Assembly (NCBI GenBank): GCA_947177445.1
Contig: CAMWUL010000005.1
Coordinates: 1-64,000 of the forward strand
Source: an uncultured Lachnospiraceae bacterium
Lineage (GTDB): Bacteria; Bacillota; Clostridia; Lachnospirales; Lachnospiraceae
Length of the DNA: 64,000 nucleotides
Direction: 5' to 3'
Of the stretch, positions 232-9,513 are shown one piece after another. Made by a program: the position numbers and the translations under genes. Under the pieces are notes generated by a model, which was not told the DNA's origin, ran no database searches, and saw only the letters and a list, made by a program, of their open reading frames with translations. Positions within the stretch are counted from its first letter, which is position 1, and each line of letters opens with the position of its first letter.

Positions 232-358
232 ACATTTAAGCGCATTATGAACAGGTATTAAGGAGAAATCATTACAATACCTTAAGCGAAATAGGGCGCA
301 GGAAACAGGTATGGATTGGATTTGAAGACTCAATTATTTGAGAAAACAGGAGGCACAT

Positions 359-589
359 ATGGCAGATTTATATGGAATTGCATTTAATGTTGAGACCGCT
401 GAAGCGGATTGTGATCTTTCCGATTTTCCGGAGGTAGTAGTTGCCTCGACAGAAGAACAGGCGGTTGACTTTGCTAAAAGGATAAGTGCCTATTGCAAGT
501 TTGTTATACCGTTTAGAAATTCCGAGAGGCGAGAGAAGGTGGACTGGCATTATATTAAAGAGAATGAGATTGTAGCCAACGCAACCTGA
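359..589 (+). CDS. small conserved protein (76 aa), copy 1 of a flanking pair
   Basis: ATG at 359 preceded by an AGGAGG ribosome-binding site; protein MADLYGIAFNVE...CDLSDFPEVVVASTEEQAVDFAKRISAYCKFVIPFRN.. is near-identical to the ORF at 9289. Confidence 0.75.
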   Translation: MADLYGIAFNVETAEADCDLSDFPEVVVASTEEQAVDFAKRISAYCKFVIPFRNSERREKVDWHYIKENEIVANAT

Positions 590-614: not shown

Positions 615-655
615 GTGCACATAATAGTCCAATGAAATCGGAATGTTATGTGCAC
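615..655. promoter_or_regulatory. perfect 10-bp inverted repeat upstream of the RADAR-like operon
   Basis: GTGCACATAA (615-624) and TTATGTGCAC (646-655), 21 bp spacer, in the gap between the small ORF and the operon. Confidence 0.4.
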
Positions 656-709: not shown

Positions 710-2161
710 ATGTTACGAATCCATTTTACGTATACCAGTTCAGAGATATGTCCAAGCGTATACTTTCTACTGTTTTTTCGACTGACCGGCGCTTATTTGT
801 ATGAAAGCTATTTTGACTCAGATGCGCAGAAGCAGGGTATGCTTTTGAATTGTCTTCCGGAGGATGCGGAAATAGAGAAAAGGCATGCGTATGATGCCTA
901 TGATCTTGAGTTGTATTATATAGCAAACAATGAAGAATATGAAAAATATGCCTGCGAAGTAATGGATATGCCGGAAAGGGATGCAGCAAGGCATATATTG
1001 GTGTGCTCACACGAAGTAAACAGAGCAGAGAGTCCGTTGCTGCCGGCAGAAGGCGGTTCTGTAAATCATTCAGCAGTGGTTCACAAAGCAGGCGCAGAGC
1101 TTGCAGCACTGCGGGATGTTCTGGATGAACTGCTGCGCAGAGAGATTATTTTCAGGGATGAATATGCTGATTTACGAGATTGCCTGCAGCTTTATGAAAA
1201 GTATAGAATATGGGAGCTGTCGCTGCAGGGAAGATTCTTTTATGCTGCAAAGGAAGATAAAGAAGATTATGTAAGAATACGGGGACGATTCGTGAAGGCG
1301 TCAAAAGCTTATTTTGAGGAGTTTATGAGTCGGGGAGGCTGGAGAAATGCAGCGACGCTTCATCTGCAATATGCATTTTTGAATCTGGCGTATGAAGGAA
1401 ATTTACACTGTATCAGAGGCGGAGGCCCAATGATCTATACGGCGGACAGTCTGGCTCATATGTGCAGGAGTTTGCTGCAGAGCTCGGACGAAGAGGGCTG
1501 GAAGGAAAGCTTCAGTCTATTATTGGCTCAGGTATATGATGATCTTTTAATGGATTATAATAAGGCTTTTGAGTATTACATTGAGTGCTGCAATGATTTT
1601 AACGCGTATGCATATTATCGCAAGGGAATTATTTTTCAGGATCAGGCAGGAGATTATGAAAAGGCGCTGAAGTATTATTTGATCAGTGTGCAAATTTACC
1701 CTGAATACTATCGAGCATGGTACAGAATCGGACGGTGCTATATGCTGCTGGATCGATATAGGGACGCGTTGGAAGCGTTTCGTAATATTATGCGGATTCT
1801 GGAGCCCCGGTTGAATGCAGATGTTTTGCGGCCTATGGAAATAGAATATTTATTTAAGGCACAGAATCAGTGCGCATATATTTGCAATAAGGCGTTGGGC
1901 AGACTGGGACAGTCGGTTATAGAGAATCAGATTGCCGTAAAGGTATGGAAGACGATCAACACCAGCAGTTTTTTTCAGCAGGCAGGTTATTCGAAAAGGC
2001 CGAGGCAGCTTTGGGAGAGGACAAAGAAAGAGCTCTGTGTAAGAAAGATATATGATGAGATTGTGAAGCTGGCAGTCAAATTGGAGGACGATCAGCTGAA
2101 AAGAAATACGCAGGAGGAGATGACGCTTTATGAGGGAGAGTGCAATGAGCGGTACGGATGA
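710..2161 (+). CDS. TPR-like repeat protein, first gene of the RADAR-like operon
   Basis: 483 aa; C-terminal helical repeats (AYAYYRKGIIFQDQAGDYEKALKYYLISVQIYPEYYRAWYRIGRCYMLLDRYRDALEAFRNI); overlaps the start of the ATPase gene. True start could be downstream of 710. Confidence 0.8.
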   Translation: MLRIHFTYTSSEICPSVYFLLFFRLTGAYLYESYFDSDAQKQGMLLNCLPEDAEIEKRHAYDAYDLELYYIANNEEYEKYACEVMDMPERDAARHILVCSHEVNRAESPLLPAEGGSVNHSAVVHKAGAELAALRDVLDELLRREIIFRDEYADLRDCLQLYEKYRIWELSLQGRFFYAAKEDKEDYVRIRGRFVKASKAYFEEFMSRGGWRNAATLHLQYAFLNLAYEGNLHCIRGGGPMIYTADSLAHMCRSLLQSSDEEGWKESFSLLLAQVYDDLLMDYNKAFEYYIECCNDFNAYAYYRKGIIFQDQAGDYEKALKYYLISVQIYPEYYRAWYRIGRCYMLLDRYRDALEAFRNIMRILEPRLNADVLRPMEIEYLFKAQNQCAYICNKALGRLGQSVIENQIAVKVWKTINTSSFFQQAGYSKRPRQLWERTKKELCVRKIYDEIVKLAVKLEDDQLKRNTQEEMTLYEGECNERYG

Positions 2162-4736
2162 AATAATCAGGAGCAAAAGGCTGGATGCGGTTAACCGGAT
2201 TAAATATGAGCGTTATGAGGAATTTGAGGAATCTTTATTCGCAGATGTATATGAGAAGGCAGTTGTACTGACATCGTATATTGTTGATGCGAATTTGCGG
2301 GATGAGTGCGATAAAGCACTTGACGGAAGAGCCTGTATGGAAGAGCAATATAGTAATATTATTGCATTTTTAGGTGAGCGTGGCATGGGGAAATCCTCTG
2401 CCATGCTTTCCTTTGCTCTTTTTTTGAAAAAATATGACGACAAAAGAATAGAAGGACGATATAAGTTGTCTTGCAAAAGGGCCCGTAATATAAACCATCC
2501 GCTCAAGTTTTATGTATTGTCAAGAATTGATGCGGCCATGCTGGTGAAAGGCGAAAATCTGATCGACATTGTTCTTGCTAAAATGTGGAGCGAATTTCGC
2601 CAAAGGATCGATGAGAGTATGGGACAGCAGAGTGAGGGAAGGGAGACGAGAGAATGCTTTGAGGCTGTAAAAAAATCCTATGAGGTTTATCAGCGCGCTG
2701 TTTCAGGCAGGGATGATCGCAATATGACATCCATCAGGCAGATGGATGAGCTTGCACGGTGCTTGAATTTGCGGAATGATTTCAGGAAGCTTGTAAATGC
2801 GTATCTGGAGTATATGTCAGGCAGGTGCCGCAGTTCCTTTTTTGTTCTCACAATAGACGACTTGGATATAGTTTCCGGGCGCACGGATGAAATATTAGAG
2901 CAGATCAGATTGTTTTTGATGGTGCCCAGAGTGATTGTACTGGCGACGGCAGATTATGGCCGGCTTTTTTTGGAATGCAATAAGTCTCTGTCAAGCAGCC
3001 TGATATGTCCCGGCAATATTGAAGAGCGGGAAAAACGGCAGATCAGAGGCTATACGGAAAAGTATCTGGCAAAAATATTTCCCGGTAATATGAGAATACA
3101 TATGCCGCGGCTGAACGTGATAGGAGGTATTCCTTTTACACTTAATGTGCAGGAGCTGGGAATTATTGAACAGGAAAAGAATGCATCAACTACGATGGAT
3201 CAGACAGAGGACAAGCAGGCTCTATTTTGGATGATTGCGTATTATTCCGGAATTATGATGTATCCCTTTGACAATCATTTACATATCCTGCAGAAACAGT
3301 CGCTGCGTGCTATTGTCAATGAATTATTTGAGTTGAAAACTCTTAAGGATATGTCTGAGCAGAGCCGGTTTCGTGCTGTATGCCGATGGCTGCAGACTGC
3401 GCTGATCGATTATGGCAGAACGGTAACGGATAAAAAGACTTATGAACAAATTCAGATATTTTTGGGCAGGGAGGTGGAATCATTTTTTGACGTGACTGCG
3501 GAGGTGCTTTTGTCATGTATCGCTGAATTTGCACTTGAAAAAGCCAACAAATTCCGGCGGCGCATAAATTGGGCGGGCTATGGCAGAATCATGCTGTATC
3601 TGTATACCCTGGAGAAGGAGGGGTATCACGGCTTTGTCCAGTTTGTTTTAGTATGGTATTCGGTTCAGCTGAGTGAGGAGAAGAGACATATAGAAAATAT
3701 AAAGCAGGACGGAACAGATATATTTTATTCCATATTGGAAGAGAAAAACTACAGTGAGGCAAGAGGCAGGAATAGACTGAGCCCTGACAAGATAAGTACG
3801 ACGCATTTGCAGCTTGTGCTGGCGGTGTCGCCGGCAGAAGATGTCGAAAAGTGGATGCTGGATAATATGGATATGATCTGCGATGCATTTAGAGTCGCTA
3901 ATCTTGGGGAATGGAATTTGTGGGACAGTGACGGAGCGGATTATCTTCAATTATATGCAGAGAAAATAAGAGATAACAGTCCCATGTTCGAGATACAGGA
4001 TGCTGATTTGAGGGTGCGATATCGGGAAAAGCTTAGGGAAGGAAAAATTATTATAAAAATCACAGCTGGAAACGAGCTTGTAGAAACATCAAAATCATCC
4101 TTTGAGATAATGCTATACAATGCATTGGAATACAGAGAACATCTGGAGGGATTTTTGGCAAATATTTACAGTGCGTTGAGCAGGCTGGCCGAAAGGACTC
4201 AGCTGTCGGAAGAGTCATATAATTCAGAGGGCGAAGATGGTGCAGGGGATATAAAAGCTGTGGAAGGTGTGGGGAAGACGGCAAATCCAAAGGATATGAC
4301 GGATGTGCTGAATAGTATCATGCAAAATAAAGTATTTGAAGAAAGAATGCATCTGAAACAATTTGATGAATGGAAAAACGGAGAATTGTATTCGAAAGCT
4401 TTGGAGGAATGGCTGCCCGTAGAAAGCATGGAGGTAATGCTTCACCTGGCGGAGGAGATCTGTAAAATCAATGCCATGTATTACAGTGATAATCTATTAG
4501 AGAGGGTTATTCATTTTCAAAGCCGGCAGCTGGGAAAGATCATTGCAGAACTGGAAAAGGTGGAGAAGTATTATAGACCTGTAAAGGGAGAAAAACACGA
4601 GTATGCCGCCAGATGGAGAATGCTGCAGGAGATCGTTGATCCATATAACATCGGGAAATCATTTATCAGAATGGCACCTGATGTTGCCAGGAATGTGACG
4701 GATGCGAATGGGATAGGCGGGAATACGGAAGTTTAG
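2145..4736 (+). CDS. rdrA: RdrA-like P-loop ATPase (RADAR ATPase subunit)
   Basis: Walker A GERGMGKSS (2374-2400), Walker B-like FFVLTIDDLDI; about 860 aa; immediately precedes a divergent adenosine deaminase. ATG 2145 with a GAGGGAG site is preferred over 2130. Confidence 0.75.
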   Translation: MSGTDEIIRSKRLDAVNRIKYERYEEFEESLFADVYEKAVVLTSYIVDANLRDECDKALDGRACMEEQYSNIIAFLGERGMGKSSAMLSFALFLKKYDDKRIEGRYKLSCKRARNINHPLKFYVLSRIDAAMLVKGENLIDIVLAKMWSEFRQRIDESMGQQSEGRETRECFEAVKKSYEVYQRAVSGRDDRNMTSIRQMDELARCLNLRNDFRKLVNAYLEYMSGRCRSSFFVLTIDDLDIVSGRTDEILEQIRLFLMVPRVIVLATADYGRLFLECNKSLSSSLICPGNIEEREKRQIRGYTEKYLAKIFPGNMRIHMPRLNVIGGIPFTLNVQELGIIEQEKNASTTMDQTEDKQALFWMIAYYSGIMMYPFDNHLHILQKQSLRAIVNELFELKTLKDMSEQSRFRAVCRWLQTALIDYGRTVTDKKTYEQIQIFLGREVESFFDVTAEVLLSCIAEFALEKANKFRRRINWAGYGRIMLYLYTLEKEGYHGFVQFVLVWYSVQLSEEKRHIENIKQDGTDIFYSILEEKNYSEARGRNRLSPDKISTTHLQLVLAVSPAEDVEKWMLDNMDMICDAFRVANLGEWNLWDSDGADYLQLYAEKIRDNSPMFEIQDADLRVRYREKLREGKIIIKITAGNELVETSKSSFEIMLYNALEYREHLEGFLANIYSALSRLAERTQLSEESYNSEGEDGAGDIKAVEGVGKTANPKDMTDVLNSIMQNKVFEERMHLKQFDEWKNGELYSKALEEWLPVESMEVMLHLAEEICKINAMYYSDNLLERVIHFQSRQLGKIIAELEKVEKYYRPVKGEKHEYAARWRMLQEIVDPYNIGKSFIRMAPDVARNVTDANGIGGNTEV

Positions 4737-4752
4737 ATACAGGGGAATACAT

Positions 4753-7578
4753 ATGGATAATTTGCGGGCAGTGATCAAAAATCTTTTTTGCTATGTGCCG
4801 CCGCAGGAGATATTGACGGGAAAGGTACAATATAACAAAATCAGTAAAGATCTGTTTCAGCAGCTTGGCAGCGGATACATATCGCGGTACTCTAACGATG
4901 AACTGATCAATATGTATCATTTTCTGGAGACGGAATTCTGGTGGCAGAACAAGAAGCTGAAGGGTGAGGTGCCTTTCGATGAAAAGCAGGGCAAGTCTCT
5001 GAATGTGTTTGATGCGCTGGTGGCTTTTGAATATGCAGTGCTGATTGAGGAAAACGGAGTGCCCTTGTGCCAGTATAGCCAGCTGCTGCGCTGGCGCGAT
5101 ATGATTACTGCCTTGGAGGAGGATTTGTTTATTGCTTCCTACTTTGCATATAAAGATATTCTCAATGGGAAAAAGAGGAAAAACTTTTTTTGGAAACCTG
5201 TGATCGGACATAATAACAGAGCGCTGAATCGTCTGGTATCCAAAGGTGTGGCGGAAAATCACTTTCACCTGAAGGGCTCCGCACCACATTTTCATCTTTC
5301 ATGGATCAGCCTTATGAATCAGCCGGACAAGCCGGAATTTGCCAAGGAGCTTAACAAATATGAAGAAAACCGGCTGCAGAAAAATCTGGAGCTTCATTCT
5401 GATGTCCCATCGGGAAAGCTGAGTTATCTGTGGCGTCAGGCTGTGCTTATCAGAGTTTTCCTGTTTTCCGTGTTAAAGGGAGACTGTCTTTCCTGGAGGG
5501 ATGTGTATGTTTCTGCGAATGTTATATTGGAGGCTGTAAGCGGGAGTGAGTTTTTTGATGAGGTTTTAAGAGCGATTGAGATGAGCGGGCCTGCCGATAC
5601 ACAGAAGGTCAGGCTGGATGCTTACAGGCGATATTTGGGCGAGAAAGCAAGAGACATAGAATGGCGCTGCACGGTGAATAAGGTAGGCGCGTTATTGAAG
5701 GATGATGCTGATCTGGCAAACCATGCAGGTGTTATTCAGGAGAACATTGACAGGTTTCAAAGAAAATATGCCAAACGGGATTTGGATTATATGATATGCG
5801 AGGGGTGGCTGGCATACAATGGGCCTGCCGATACCAATGGTCCGCTCAGCGGGGAAAGATGGTTTTTGTATCGGATGTTTAAAGCAGTATATGCAAGGGA
5901 AGCGGAGTTTGAACCCTATATTAACTGGTTTTATCTTTATCTGATTATTAAGGCGAATATCAGAAGGGAGCTGGTACAGGCAAATGCCAATGTTGGATTT
6001 GACAATTTCCTGCGGTATCAAAACAGAAAGGATGTTTTTGTAGAAAATAGTATATATGAGAAGGTATATATACGTATGGCCGTAAGGGATACTATATATA
6101 ATCAGCACATTAAAAGCCTGGAGGCCAGGATAGTGCCCAAAAGAACGGTTGATGAAAATATCAGGGCAATCAGAAAATATGACAGTTGGATCACGGATGC
6201 CTTGGATGATGAGCGCGAGAAAAGAGATTTGCAGGAAAAATATTTTTATGTATATCATTTTGTAAAGGATTCCGAGAGAATCGAGAGAAGTAGTCCGGAT
6301 CTGGAAAAATTTCGTCATTATGCAAAGCGCTGGGAGGTAAAGGAGCAGGCGCTGGCTATAGCGGGACTTCGGGAAAGAGGTGTGCCTGAATCGGCCCGGA
6401 TTAAAGGGATAGATGCGGCTTCTCCTGAAATTTGGTGCAGACCGGAGGTATTTGCGCAGGCATTTCGATTTCTCAAAAATCATTGGGTGGAGAGCGGGCG
6501 GTTTCCATTTGCAGAGACGGAGTGCAGCACCCTTCTGGCTACATACCATGTGGGAGAGGATTTTCTTGATATTCTGGATGGACTTCGGGCAATCGACGAG
6601 GCGATTCTATTTTTGAATCTGCGCTGTGGGGACCGGCTGGGTCATGCGTTAGCGCTGGGCGTAGATATTGATGAGTGGTATGAGAGCAAGTCAAACAGAA
6701 TCTTGATCAACAAGATGGGCTATTTGGATAATCTTGTCTGGATATATGGGAAGCTGAGGCAATTTAATATAGCGGGATGCGATAAAGCAAAAACTTATAT
6801 TGAAAAGCGATTTCATGAATATTTTCTCGAGATATATGAAAATAACATGAAAAGAGATATGATCGAGTCAGTTATAAGACAGGCAGAGCAATATTATGAT
6901 AAGCATGGTATCAAGCATAATTACGGGCATGATATGCTGTCTTTTAATATTGATGGATATTATGATGCCTGGAAGCTCCGCGGAGATGCTCCAGAGCTTT
7001 ATGAGGACGGCTTTTTTAAGATCCACAATACAATTATGGATGAGTGGGACGAATATGCTTTGAACAGCGAATTCCCGCTGAACTATAGAATTCGTTATGT
7101 TCCGGAGACTGCCCTGCTTTATCATTTGTACCATTTTAACCCTGATGTGAAGATTGCGGGGGATGAGATGGTGGAGATCAAGATTCGGCCCTGCATCATA
7201 GAGGCCGTCAAGAAGGTACGTGAAGCAATGCAAAGGGAAATCTGCCGTATGGGAATTGCTATTGAGACTAATCCTTCCTCGAATTATTTGATCGGTACTT
7301 TCAGGCGGTACGATAAGCATCCTATCATTCAATGGTACAACTATGGACTGACATTAAATCAGGAGGAGCTGCAGCGGTGTCCCCAAATGCAGGTGTCGAT
7401 TAATACGGATGATCAGGGGGTATTTTCCACTTACATTGAGAATGAATACGCTTACTTGGCTTTGGCGCTGGAGAAGCGGAAGGATGAAAACGGTAACTTT
7501 GTATATAACAGAACCATGATTCTGCAGTGGCTGGATCATATCAGATTAATGGGGATTGACCAAAGCTTTTGGAGATGA
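4753..7578 (+). CDS. rdrB: RdrB-like divergent adenosine deaminase (RADAR deaminase subunit)
   Basis: 941 aa with ADA-superfamily motifs in order: NHFHLKGS (HxH, 5260-5268), YHVGED (HxGE, near 6547), DRLGHA (6634-6648), IETNPSSN, INTDDQGVF (NTDD 7402-7413); 16 nt downstream of the ATPase stop. Confidence 0.8.
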   Translation: MDNLRAVIKNLFCYVPPQEILTGKVQYNKISKDLFQQLGSGYISRYSNDELINMYHFLETEFWWQNKKLKGEVPFDEKQGKSLNVFDALVAFEYAVLIEENGVPLCQYSQLLRWRDMITALEEDLFIASYFAYKDILNGKKRKNFFWKPVIGHNNRALNRLVSKGVAENHFHLKGSAPHFHLSWISLMNQPDKPEFAKELNKYEENRLQKNLELHSDVPSGKLSYLWRQAVLIRVFLFSVLKGDCLSWRDVYVSANVILEAVSGSEFFDEVLRAIEMSGPADTQKVRLDAYRRYLGEKARDIEWRCTVNKVGALLKDDADLANHAGVIQENIDRFQRKYAKRDLDYMICEGWLAYNGPADTNGPLSGERWFLYRMFKAVYAREAEFEPYINWFYLYLIIKANIRRELVQANANVGFDNFLRYQNRKDVFVENSIYEKVYIRMAVRDTIYNQHIKSLEARIVPKRTVDENIRAIRKYDSWITDALDDEREKRDLQEKYFYVYHFVKDSERIERSSPDLEKFRHYAKRWEVKEQALAIAGLRERGVPESARIKGIDAASPEIWCRPEVFAQAFRFLKNHWVESGRFPFAETECSTLLATYHVGEDFLDILDGLRAIDEAILFLNLRCGDRLGHALALGVDIDEWYESKSNRILINKMGYLDNLVWIYGKLRQFNIAGCDKAKTYIEKRFHEYFLEIYENNMKRDMIESVIRQAEQYYDKHGIKHNYGHDMLSFNIDGYYDAWKLRGDAPELYEDGFFKIHNTIMDEWDEYALNSEFPLNYRIRYVPETALLYHLYHFNPDVKIAGDEMVEIKIRPCIIEAVKKVREAMQREICRMGIAIETNPSSNYLIGTFRRYDKHPIIQWYNYGLTLNQEELQRCPQMQVSINTDDQGVFSTYIENEYAYLALALEKRKDENGNFVYNRTMILQWLDHIRLMGIDQSFWR

Positions 7579-7591
7579 ATCGTGTTAAGAT

Positions 7592-9214
7592 ATGGATAAC
7601 TTTGAGAAATTGCGGATGTCGGGATCCTTTTATGTTGATAAGTCATCATTTATAAAAGAGTGGTGGGAACAGGATGACGATGTTACTTTAATTACACGTC
7701 CACGCCGTTTTGGAAAAACGTTAAACATGAGCATGATGGAATGCTTCTTTTCTATAAAGTATGCAGGACGAAGCGAGCTGTTTGAGGACCTGTCTGTTTG
7801 GAACGACGAGATTTTTCGGAAGCTTCAGGGGACATTTCCGGTGATATTTGTGAGCTTTGCAGGGGTAAAGGCAAACAATTTCCGCGGGGCTAAGGACGGT
7901 ATTATCAAAGCTATAGCTAATGCATATAATGCCTGTTCCTATGTAAAGGAAAGCGGGGTTTTGACAGAGGAGGAGAAATCTTTTTACGATATTTTTCAAG
8001 ACTATTCGGTTAATCCGTCTCCGGAAAAGAGGATTTCGGATCTTGTTGTAACTGCGTCGCTTCAGACGCTTGCGTTGTATATGGAGCGCCTTTACAGTAA
8101 AAAGGTTTTGATATTTTTGGATGAGTATGATACGCCGCTGCAGGAGGCGTATATATCAGGATATTGGGATGAACTGGCGGGCTTTGTCAGAGAATTATTC
8201 AATTTAACCTTTAAGGAAAATAAGGGGCTAGATCGCGCAATTATGACAGGAATCACCCGTGTAAGTAAGGAATCTATCTTCTCGGATTTAAACAATTTGG
8301 AAGTAGTAACTACGACGTCAGATAAATACTGTGAGTCGTTTGGATTTACAGAAGACGAAGTCAATGAGGCGCTGAACCAGTTGGGCAGGGAGCTATGCTG
8401 GGACGTGTGCGGCATTGGTATGACGGATTTCGATTTGGCAGTAGGGAAGGAATCTATAATCCCTGGTCAATTACAAAGTTTTTGGATACAGGCATGTTTG
8501 ATACGTATTGGGCAAACACGAGTTCCAACAGCTTGGCCGGGAGGCTTATTCGAGAGGGCGGAGCTGAAATAAAGATTGCAATGGAGGATTTGCTGGAGGG
8601 AAAGAGTATTGAAACTACGATAGATGAGGAAGTGGTGTTTGACCAATTGGAAGATAATAGCAGTGCAGTGTGGAGTCTGCTTCTTGCTGCGGGTTATCTA
8701 AAGGTGACGGGTATATCTGAAAGCAGTGATGAAGAGGATACTATGTACAGTCTGGCGTTAACTGATCTTGAGGTTAAAAAAGAATTTCGCAGAATGATAC
8801 GCAGCTGGTTCAGCAGATCTTCCGTGCGCTACAATGATTTTATAAAAGCACTTCAGGCGGACAATGTGAGCTATATGAATCAATATATGAACAGGGTGGC
8901 ATCGTCAGTGTTTAGCTTTTTCGACACAGGGAAGCATCCCTCGGGGCAGTCGGAGCCGGAGCGTTTTTATCATGGGTTTGTATTGGGGCTGATTGTTGAT
9001 TCGCAGTTGGATTATGTGATTACGTCTAACCGCGAAAGCGGCTTCGGAAACAACGTTGGAAGAAACCGTGCAGAGTGCTTTAAACCAGATTGATGAAAAA
9101 GGTTATAATAAAGTACTGATGGAAAGGGGAATACCTGAAGGCCGGATCCGGCATTATGGATTTGCGTTTGAGGGAAAGCAGGTGCTTATAGGGGACAGCC
9201 GAATGAGGCCCTAA
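7592..9214 (+). pseudogene. AAA-ATPase-like / PD-(D/E)XK nuclease family protein, disrupted
   Basis: N-part MDNFEKLRMSGSFYVDKSSFIKEWWEQDDDVTLITRPRRFGKTLNMSM; frame changes near 8395 (continues as VRHWYDGFRFGSREGIYNPWSI); after SGFG (about 9045-9055) the frame shifts again to ETTLEETVQSALNQIDEKGYNKVLMERGIPEGRIRHYGFAFEGKQVLIG. Confidence 0.8.
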
Positions 9215-9288
9215 AACAGCTGTTGCGCTAACGGGGAAGAGAGGGCTAGTCAGCTGAAATAACAGTAACGATACAGCAGGAGGAATAT

Positions 9289-9513
9289 ATGGCAGATTTA
9301 TATGGGGTTGCATTTGCGGTTGAGAACAATGAAGAGAATTGTGATCTTTCCGATTTTCCGGAGGTAGTGGTTGCTTCAACGGAAGAACAGGCAGTTGACT
9401 TTGCGAAAAGGATAAGCGCTTATTGCAAATTTGTTATACCATTTAGGAATCCTGAGAGACGTGAAAAGATGGATTGGCGCTACATTAAGGAGAATGAAAT
9501 TGCGAGTAAGTAA
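9289..9513 (+). CDS. small conserved protein, copy 2 of the flanking pair
   Basis: AGGAGG site before ATG 9289; MADLYGVAFAVENNEENCDLSDFPEVVVASTEEQAVDFAKRISAYCKFVIPFRNPERREKMDWRYIKENEI, about 87% identical by eye over 71 aa to 359-589. Confidence 0.75.
   Translation: MADLYGVAFAVENNEENCDLSDFPEVVVASTEEQAVDFAKRISAYCKFVIPFRNPERREKMDWRYIKENEIASK

What the first reader, a model, noticed from the sequence alone, without database searches (positions are those of the whole stretch)
710..7578. RADAR-like anti-phage operon in a Gram-positive gut-type genome
Seen: a P-loop ATPase (Walker A GERGMGKSS, Walker B-like LTIDDLDI) is followed 16 nt later by a 941 aa protein with every ADA-superfamily landmark in order: HFH, YHVGED, DRLGHA, IETNPSSN, INTDDQ. 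Known: RADAR pairs the RdrA ATPase with the divergent deaminase RdrB and protects against phage through adenosine/ATP-pool deamination. Inference: this is a functional, divergent RADAR locus, since both catalytic motif sets look intact.
Basis: partly seen in the sequence, partly recalled or inferred. Interest (0 to 1): 0.85.

Follow-up and report, generated by a model that had tools for sequence, protein, structure and literature searches.

The report
RADAR phage-defence operon with third gene
A gut Lachnospiraceae bacterium carries a strongly diverged but apparently intact copy of the RADAR phage-defence system (an ATPase plus an ATP-deaminating enzyme), and its branch of RADAR nearly always has a third gene, for a tetratricopeptide-repeat protein, directly in front, so the usual two-gene description is incomplete for this branch.

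Summary
2130-4736 encodes an RdrA-type AAA+ ATPase and 4753-7578 an RdrB-type adenosine deaminase, 16 nt apart, with every listed motif at the stated place. Profile searches of solved structures support RADAR specifically: the RdrA profile hits only E. coli RdrA entries; the RdrB profile scores 230 bits on RdrB against 35 on ordinary adenosine deaminases. Identity to an E. coli-type RADAR (27-29%) is like that reported between phage-tested RADAR systems.

710-2161, overlapping rdrA by 32 nt, encodes a protein with an N-terminal flavodoxin-like alpha/beta domain and a TPR solenoid. It is no chance neighbour: in an RdrB tree of 93 loci, one clade of 45 holds all 39 loci with this gene, always adjacent to and co-directional with rdrA; in 394 genomes of the family all 8 full-length members sit in front of rdrA-rdrB. 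Relatives also carry known RADAR accessory membrane genes (Csx27-like, SLATT-like) downstream.

Most likely mechanism: phage-triggered ATP/dATP deamination, with the TPR protein as a RADAR-specific sensor or adaptor acting on RdrA (inferred). New variant of a known kind. Whether published four-gene RADAR already includes this gene could not be read.

The parts
710..2161 (+). third gene of the operon: 483-aa protein with N-terminal alpha/beta domain and TPR solenoid
   Evidence: ORF; Pfam TPR hits; models; conserved directly upstream of rdrA in 39 of 39 loci that have it; 8 of 8 full-length family members in 394 genomes are RADAR-linked
710..1147 (+). N-terminal flavodoxin-like (Rossmannoid) domain, residues 1-146, with conserved FFRxxGxxVxE motif
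   Evidence: AlphaFold pLDDT 84, pTM 0.77; nearest folds PurE, CheY-like receivers, flavoproteins at E 0.004-0.02; conservation
2130..4736 (+). rdrA: AAA+ ATPase, 868 aa; overlaps the upstream gene by 32 nt
   Evidence: NCBIfam RdrA 3.9e-12; PADLOC RdrA 9.6e-6; profile hits only E. coli RdrA in the PDB, 2e-19
2373..2399 (+). Walker A GERGMGKSS
   Evidence: G82, R84, G85, G87, K88 invariant in 12 relatives
2847..2870 (+). Walker B LTIDDLDI
   Evidence: D243, D244, D246 invariant in 12 relatives
4753..7578 (+). rdrB: divergent adenosine deaminase, 941 aa
   Evidence: NCBIfam RdrB 3e-55; PADLOC 7.8e-35; PDB 8fnv 2.5e-25; profile 7.8e-67
5260..5268 (+). HxH zinc-binding motif (H170, H172)
   Evidence: invariant in 18 relatives; corresponds to E. 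coli RdrB H152/H154
6544..6561 (+). YHVGED: third zinc His (H599) and catalytic Glu (E602)
   Evidence: invariant; aligned to E. coli H498/E501
6631..6648 (+). DRLGHA: fourth His (H631)
   Evidence: nearly invariant; aligned to E. coli H530
7399..7416 (+). INTDDQ: conserved active-site Asp pair (D886, D887)
   Evidence: invariant in 18 relatives
7592..9093 (+). downstream PF09820 AAA-ATPase-like gene in two overlapping frames (frameshifted); probably not part of the system
   Evidence: PF09820 8.5e-39; two ORFs 7592-8572 and 8395-9093
340..572 (+). left copy of a direct repeat (small gene) that brackets the operon
   Evidence: 84% identity to 9270-9502, only two copies in the genome
9270..9502 (+). 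right copy of the same direct repeat

Best explanation
This is an apparently intact, diverged RADAR operon of a three-gene clade found mainly in Lachnospiraceae: TPR protein - RdrA - RdrB. By homology, RdrB is a zinc deaminase that turns ATP/dATP into ITP/dITP during phage infection, and RdrA is the AAA+ ATPase that docks on and activates it (shown for E. coli RADAR, inferred here). The upstream gene makes a protein with a flavodoxin-like N-terminal domain and a TPR solenoid; its fixed position and exclusive occurrence indicate that it works with RADAR. Its most likely role, inferred, is a sensor or adaptor that binds RdrA and couples a phage signal to it. Sub-confidences: RADAR homologue 0.95; third gene is a functional component of this clade 0.85; sensor/adaptor acting on RdrA 0.45.
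For: RdrB: NCBIfam 3e-55, PADLOC 8e-35, PDB RdrB 2.5e-25, profile 230 bits on RdrB vs 35 on ADA. RdrA: profile hits in the PDB are only E. coli RdrA. Active sites conserved. Third gene: directly upstream of rdrA, same strand, 39 of 39, median gap 12 nt; one RdrB clade of 45 with SH-aLRT 98 holds all of them; 8 of 8 full-length members in 394 genomes are RADAR-linked; tandem second TPR-rdrA pair in L062. Relatives carry Csx27-like and DUF4231 (SLATT-like) genes downstream, the accessory genes of published RADAR subtypes.
Against: No functional data. NCBIfam equivalog cut-offs are not met. The RdrA C-terminal half has no recognisable similarity to E. coli RdrA. The clade nearest to it lacks the TPR gene, so RADAR can exist without it. 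Nothing shows that the TPR protein touches RdrA.
Confidence: 0.75

Rival explanations
1. Plain two-gene RADAR: the TPR gene is a co-inherited neighbour or expression regulator with no part in the defence reaction.
For: The sister clade and canonical RADAR work or exist without it; L122 lost it.
Against: Strict adjacency and orientation in 39 of 39 loci, one clade, and no full-length member outside RADAR loci in 394 genomes; a gene with no role would be lost or found elsewhere more often.
Confidence: 0.12
2. The TPR protein is a brake or safety device (negative regulator) of RdrA-RdrB rather than a sensor: it keeps the deaminase off until infection.
For: RADAR activity drains ATP and so needs control; the gene comes first in the operon and is tightly linked.
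Against: No direct evidence either way; L122 keeps rdrB without it, but its rdrA is in two frames, which fits either reading.
Confidence: 0.3
3. The ATPase-deaminase pair is not defence but another nucleotide-handling unit, such as a CARF-ADA-like effector or a metabolic deaminase.
For: A weak PADLOC hit to CARF5--CARF_ADA and a sub-threshold Pfam A_deaminase hit.
Against: CARF_ADA scores 17 bits against 118 for RdrB and matches only residues 830-903; the RdrA partner and known RADAR accessory genes go with it.
Confidence: 0.04
4. The locus is a decaying remnant and inactive.
For: The downstream AAA-like gene is frameshifted, and some relatives are broken: L063 rdrA interrupted by a transposase-like gene, L042 rdrB with an internal deletion.
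Against: All three window ORFs are full length with catalytic motifs intact.
Confidence: 0.07

Closest known systems
RADAR, RdrA/RdrB (E. coli, C. rodentium, S. suis; PMC9994260)
   Same: Adjacent AAA+ ATPase and divergent adenosine deaminase; same zinc and catalytic residues; profile matches specific to the solved RdrA and RdrB; similar degree of divergence.
   Different: RdrA C-terminal half not recognisable; an extra conserved upstream TPR gene; RdrB 941 aa against 798-799 aa in the solved chains.
Csx27-associated (rdrABC) and SLATT-associated (rdrABCD) RADAR subtypes, as named in PMC7699616
   Same: Relatives in the same clade carry a Csx27-like or DUF4231/SLATT-like membrane gene after rdrB.
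   Different: The window has neither. What all four genes of the published SLATT type encode could not be read (primary paper not held), so one of them may be this TPR family.
CARF-fused adenosine deaminase (Cad1 type)
   Same: ADA-superfamily catalytic end.
   Different: No CARF hit, weak score (17 bits), separate ATPase partner.
Generic TPR proteins (MamA, CTPR, O-GlcNAc transferase TPR region)
   Same: TPR repeats and a superhelical solenoid.
   Different: Own N-terminal alpha/beta domain; linked to RADAR loci; no PADLOC model recognises the family.

Membership tests
RADAR | RdrB: ADA-fold deaminase with HxH, His, Glu, His and Asp catalytic set | tested here: met
   Motifs present and aligned to E. 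coli H152/H154/H498/E501/H530; invariant or nearly so in 18 relatives
RADAR | RdrB is nearer to RdrB than to ordinary ADA or CARF-ADA | tested here: met
   230 vs 35 bits in the PDB; PADLOC 118 vs 17 bits
RADAR | RdrA: AAA+ ATPase of the RdrA type with Walker A and B | tested here: met
   Profile hits only E. coli RdrA in the PDB, 2e-19; Walker residues invariant
RADAR | RdrA C-terminal helical domain of the two-layered ring | tested here: inconclusive
   No sequence match outside the ATPase core; RdrA was not folded. PMC9994260 reports the same low conservation among tested systems
RADAR | rdrA and rdrB adjacent, same strand | tested here: met
   16 nt apart; same in relatives
RADAR | RdrA heptamer and RdrB dodecamer assembly | not testable with these tools
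   Needs biochemistry or cryo-EM
RADAR | ATP/dATP to ITP/dITP conversion and phage protection | not testable with these tools
   Needs expression and phage challenge
NCBIfam equivalogs NF041743 (RdrA) and NF041744 (RdrB) | Score above the curated cut-off | tested here: not met
   45 of 600 bits and 188 of 800 bits. I read this as narrowness of the models: the best E-value among 18 relatives, including the loci without the TPR gene, is only 5e-64
CARF-fused adenosine deaminase | CARF domain with the deaminase | tested here: not met
   No CARF hit; only residues 830-903 match, at 17 bits
TIR domain proteins (considered for the N-terminal domain of the third protein) | Sequence-profile or fold similarity to TIR | tested here: not met
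   hhalign probability 0.8% against 26 TIR_2 domains; no TIR among the 50 best PDB fold hits, although two relatives read FISY(S/N)S at strand 1
Csx27- or SLATT-associated RADAR | Csx27 or SLATT gene in the operon | tested here: not met
   Window: the gene after rdrB is PF09820 AAA-like; the membrane genes occur only in relatives

The most novel reading that the evidence does not exclude
A monophyletic three-component RADAR subtype in which a dedicated alpha/beta-TPR protein is the phage sensor or activity gate of RdrA, supplying the sensing step left open in the two-gene system ('unknown phage signal', PMC9994260).
Probability: 0.45. Interest if true: 0.7.

Novelty: new variant of a known kind. 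Interest (0 to 1): 0.5.

Why it matters
How RADAR notices a phage is unknown; in E. coli the RdrA C-terminal domain is only proposed as the sensor (PMC9994260). A clade with a separate, strictly linked TPR subunit gives a genetic handle on sensing: remove or swap one gene and ask whether phage specificity, ITP production or toxicity changes. It also suggests that RADAR in gut Lachnospiraceae is commoner than narrow models would show: 16 of 397 genomes of the family matched an RdrB query, while the window locus itself falls far below the NCBIfam cut-offs and reaches PADLOC's RdrA models only weakly.

Tried and rejected
(1) TIR identity for the N-terminal domain, suggested by FISY(S/N)S in L073 and L062: not supported by profile comparison or fold search. 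One search was faulty because minus-strand loci were not turned; redone. (2) CARF-ADA membership: rejected. (3) The downstream PF09820 AAA-like gene as a fourth component: frameshifted in the window and similar genes near only a few relatives' loci. (4) A first genome-contig scan with the single sequence found nothing; the alignment-based scan gave 220 relatives, of which 80 were kept. (5) PADLOC accessions next to the RdrB models, tried in case they held RdrC/RdrD, are Tmn and Upx. (6) Empty-site test with the flanking small gene: no copy in 60 other genomes of the genus, so no empty site could be read. (7) Phage records: no match; plasmids: 8 distant matches. (9) One search aligned RdrA with RdrB by mistake and means nothing.
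Full report
OBSERVATION. The interval 710-7578 contains three ORFs, not two: 710-2161 (483 aa), 2130-4736 (868 aa) and 4753-7578 (941 aa), with junctions of -32 and +16 nt. The window is the left end of contig 5 of a genome in family f1. The family is Lachnospiraceae: the family member's contig held as L031 has the same length and gene table as L096, whose public record is titled uncultured Lachnospiraceae bacterium. The operon is single copy in the genome.

RdrB. The 941-aa protein matches RdrB models in PADLOC (8e-35) and NCBIfam (3e-55) and the solved E. coli RdrB (2.5e-25). A profile of 18 relatives gives 7.8e-67 on RdrB over positions 86-845, against 4e-08 on ordinary adenosine deaminases, which match only the C-terminal segment. 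Reading the alignment to 8fnv, window H599, E602 and H631 fall on E. coli H498, E501 and H530; the HxH (H170, H172) corresponds to H152/H154. These are the zinc ligands and catalytic residue named in PMC9994260. HxH, H599, E602 and D886/D887 are invariant in all 18 sequences.

RdrA. Alone the 868-aa protein finds nothing in the PDB, but a 12-sequence profile finds exactly two distinct sequences at E below 0.01, both the RADAR ATPase (8fnt/8fnw and 8hr7; 2e-19). The match covers the ATPase core; the C-terminal half is not recognised. That is also how PMC9994260 describes the tested systems: RdrA conserved only in the ATPase domain (22-25%) and RdrB only in its C-terminal part (24-28%). Window against the E. 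coli-type L141 gives 29% and 27% for two RdrB segments and 28% for the RdrA core, so the divergence is about that between systems shown to defend. NCBIfam equivalog cut-offs are far from met.

THE THIRD GENE. Pfam sees TPR repeats in 710-2161. AlphaFold of the full protein (8 sequences, mean pLDDT 67) gives an alpha/beta start followed by a helical solenoid that matches TPR structures. The N-terminal 146 residues with 40 rows fold well (pLDDT 84, pTM 0.77) as an alpha/beta domain; the nearest PDB folds are PurE, CheY-like receivers and flavoproteins at E 0.004-0.02, none below 0.001, so only the fold class is suggested. Two relatives read FISY(S/N)S at the first strand, which recalls TIR, but profile comparison gave 0.8% probability and no TIR appeared in the fold hits shown. 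The most conserved feature is F-F-R-x-x-G-x-x-V-x-E, with the glycine in all 41 sequences.

IS IT LINKED TO RADAR? Three looks. (a) Synteny: wherever it was found in front of RdrA, it is on the same strand and directly adjacent, 39 of 39, median gap 12 nt. (b) Phylogeny: in a tree of 93 RdrB sequences one branch (SH-aLRT 98) holds all 39 loci with the gene, 5 whose contigs end too early to tell, and one without (L122, whose rdrA is in two frames). The neighbouring clade of 39 (Bacteroidota, Fusobacteriota, Clostridia) and the more canonical loci lack it. The pattern fits one gain and vertical keeping; the tree is a quick build, rooted at the midpoint only. (c) Specificity: a genome-wide profile search of 394 genomes of the family found 8 full-length members, all in front of rdrA-rdrB, and two weak partial hits elsewhere. 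L062 adds a tandem case: after the first operon and one further gene comes a second family member whose end overlaps the start of another rdrA-like ORF, cut by the contig end.

KNOWN ACCESSORY GENES. Downstream of rdrB, relatives carry either a Csx27-like protein (L090 2.5e-07, L116 3e-04; similar-looking genes in L039, L069, L078, L083) or a DUF4231 (SLATT-like, from my own knowledge of that Pfam family) protein (L107, L093, just below the Pfam cut-off; similar-looking genes in L032, L033). Csx27 and SLATT are the accessory genes of the published RADAR subtypes rdrABC and rdrABCD. They vary within the clade while the TPR gene is constant. The window has neither: a PF09820 AAA-like gene in two overlapping frames follows rdrB. 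What the four genes of the published SLATT type encode could not be read. My recollection, unverified, is that the additional genes are small membrane proteins, which the TPR protein is not. The novelty claim for the TPR gene is therefore provisional.

MECHANISM. Shown elsewhere: RdrA enhances RdrB, which deaminates ATP/dATP during infection, and the phage signal is unknown (PMC9994260). Shown here: conserved catalytic parts and a near-obligate third gene. Inferred: the TPR protein binds RdrA and passes on or gates the signal. A negative-regulator role is the main rival for that last step.

SETTING. The segment lies between two 84%-identical copies of a 233-nt repeat carrying a small gene found nowhere else in this genome and not in 60 others of the genus, which suggests an acquired cassette but does not prove it. 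To the right begin chromosomal genes (12158 onward); the rest of the window looks metabolic by eye. There was no match in phage records and 8 distant ones on plasmids.

VERDICT. Real, correctly recognised, incomplete as described. New variant of a known kind; interest 0.5, raised by the third gene and limited by the absence of functional data and by the unread primary subtype description.

Noticed in passing
window 340-572 and 9270-9502: A 233-nt direct repeat (84% identical) carrying a 73-76 aa gene brackets the operon; these are its only two copies in the genome and none was found in 60 other genomes of the genus. It may mark the ends of an acquired cassette.
   Followed up: partly
window 615-655: A perfect 10-bp inverted repeat (GTGCACATAA ... 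TTATGTGCAC, 21-nt spacer) lies 55-95 nt upstream of the first gene; possible operator or hairpin.
   Followed up: no
L079, L087, L097, L124, L126 (Bacteroidota); also L108, L080 and L122: RdrA is encoded in two consecutive ORFs (about 310-360 aa with the ATPase core, or 505 aa in L108, then about 385-700 aa) in several genera: gene fission, frameshifting or repeated breakage.
   Followed up: no
L042 6772-9255: RdrB carries an in-frame gap of roughly 210 residues relative to the window (about 627-836), which removes the DRLGH histidine, while its TPR and RdrA genes are intact. Real deletion or assembly error.
   Followed up: no
L062 126-10628: Two RADAR operons in tandem: TPR-rdrA-rdrB, one gene, then a second TPR gene and the start of a second rdrA at the contig end.
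   Followed up: partly
G029, G176, G345 (L031/L047, L032/L048, L038/L046): Three genomes carry two different RADAR loci at once: one of the window's wider group and one more distant, without the TPR gene.
   Followed up: partly
L063 3230-7191: In a Candidatus Acetatifactor relative the rdrA gene is interrupted by an IS110-like transposase ORF and rdrB is in two frames, so the locus is decaying there (IS110 by eye).
   Followed up: no
window 7592-9093: PF09820 AAA-ATPase-like gene in two overlapping frames directly downstream of rdrB; the close relative L058 has a similar gene at the same place.
   Followed up: partly
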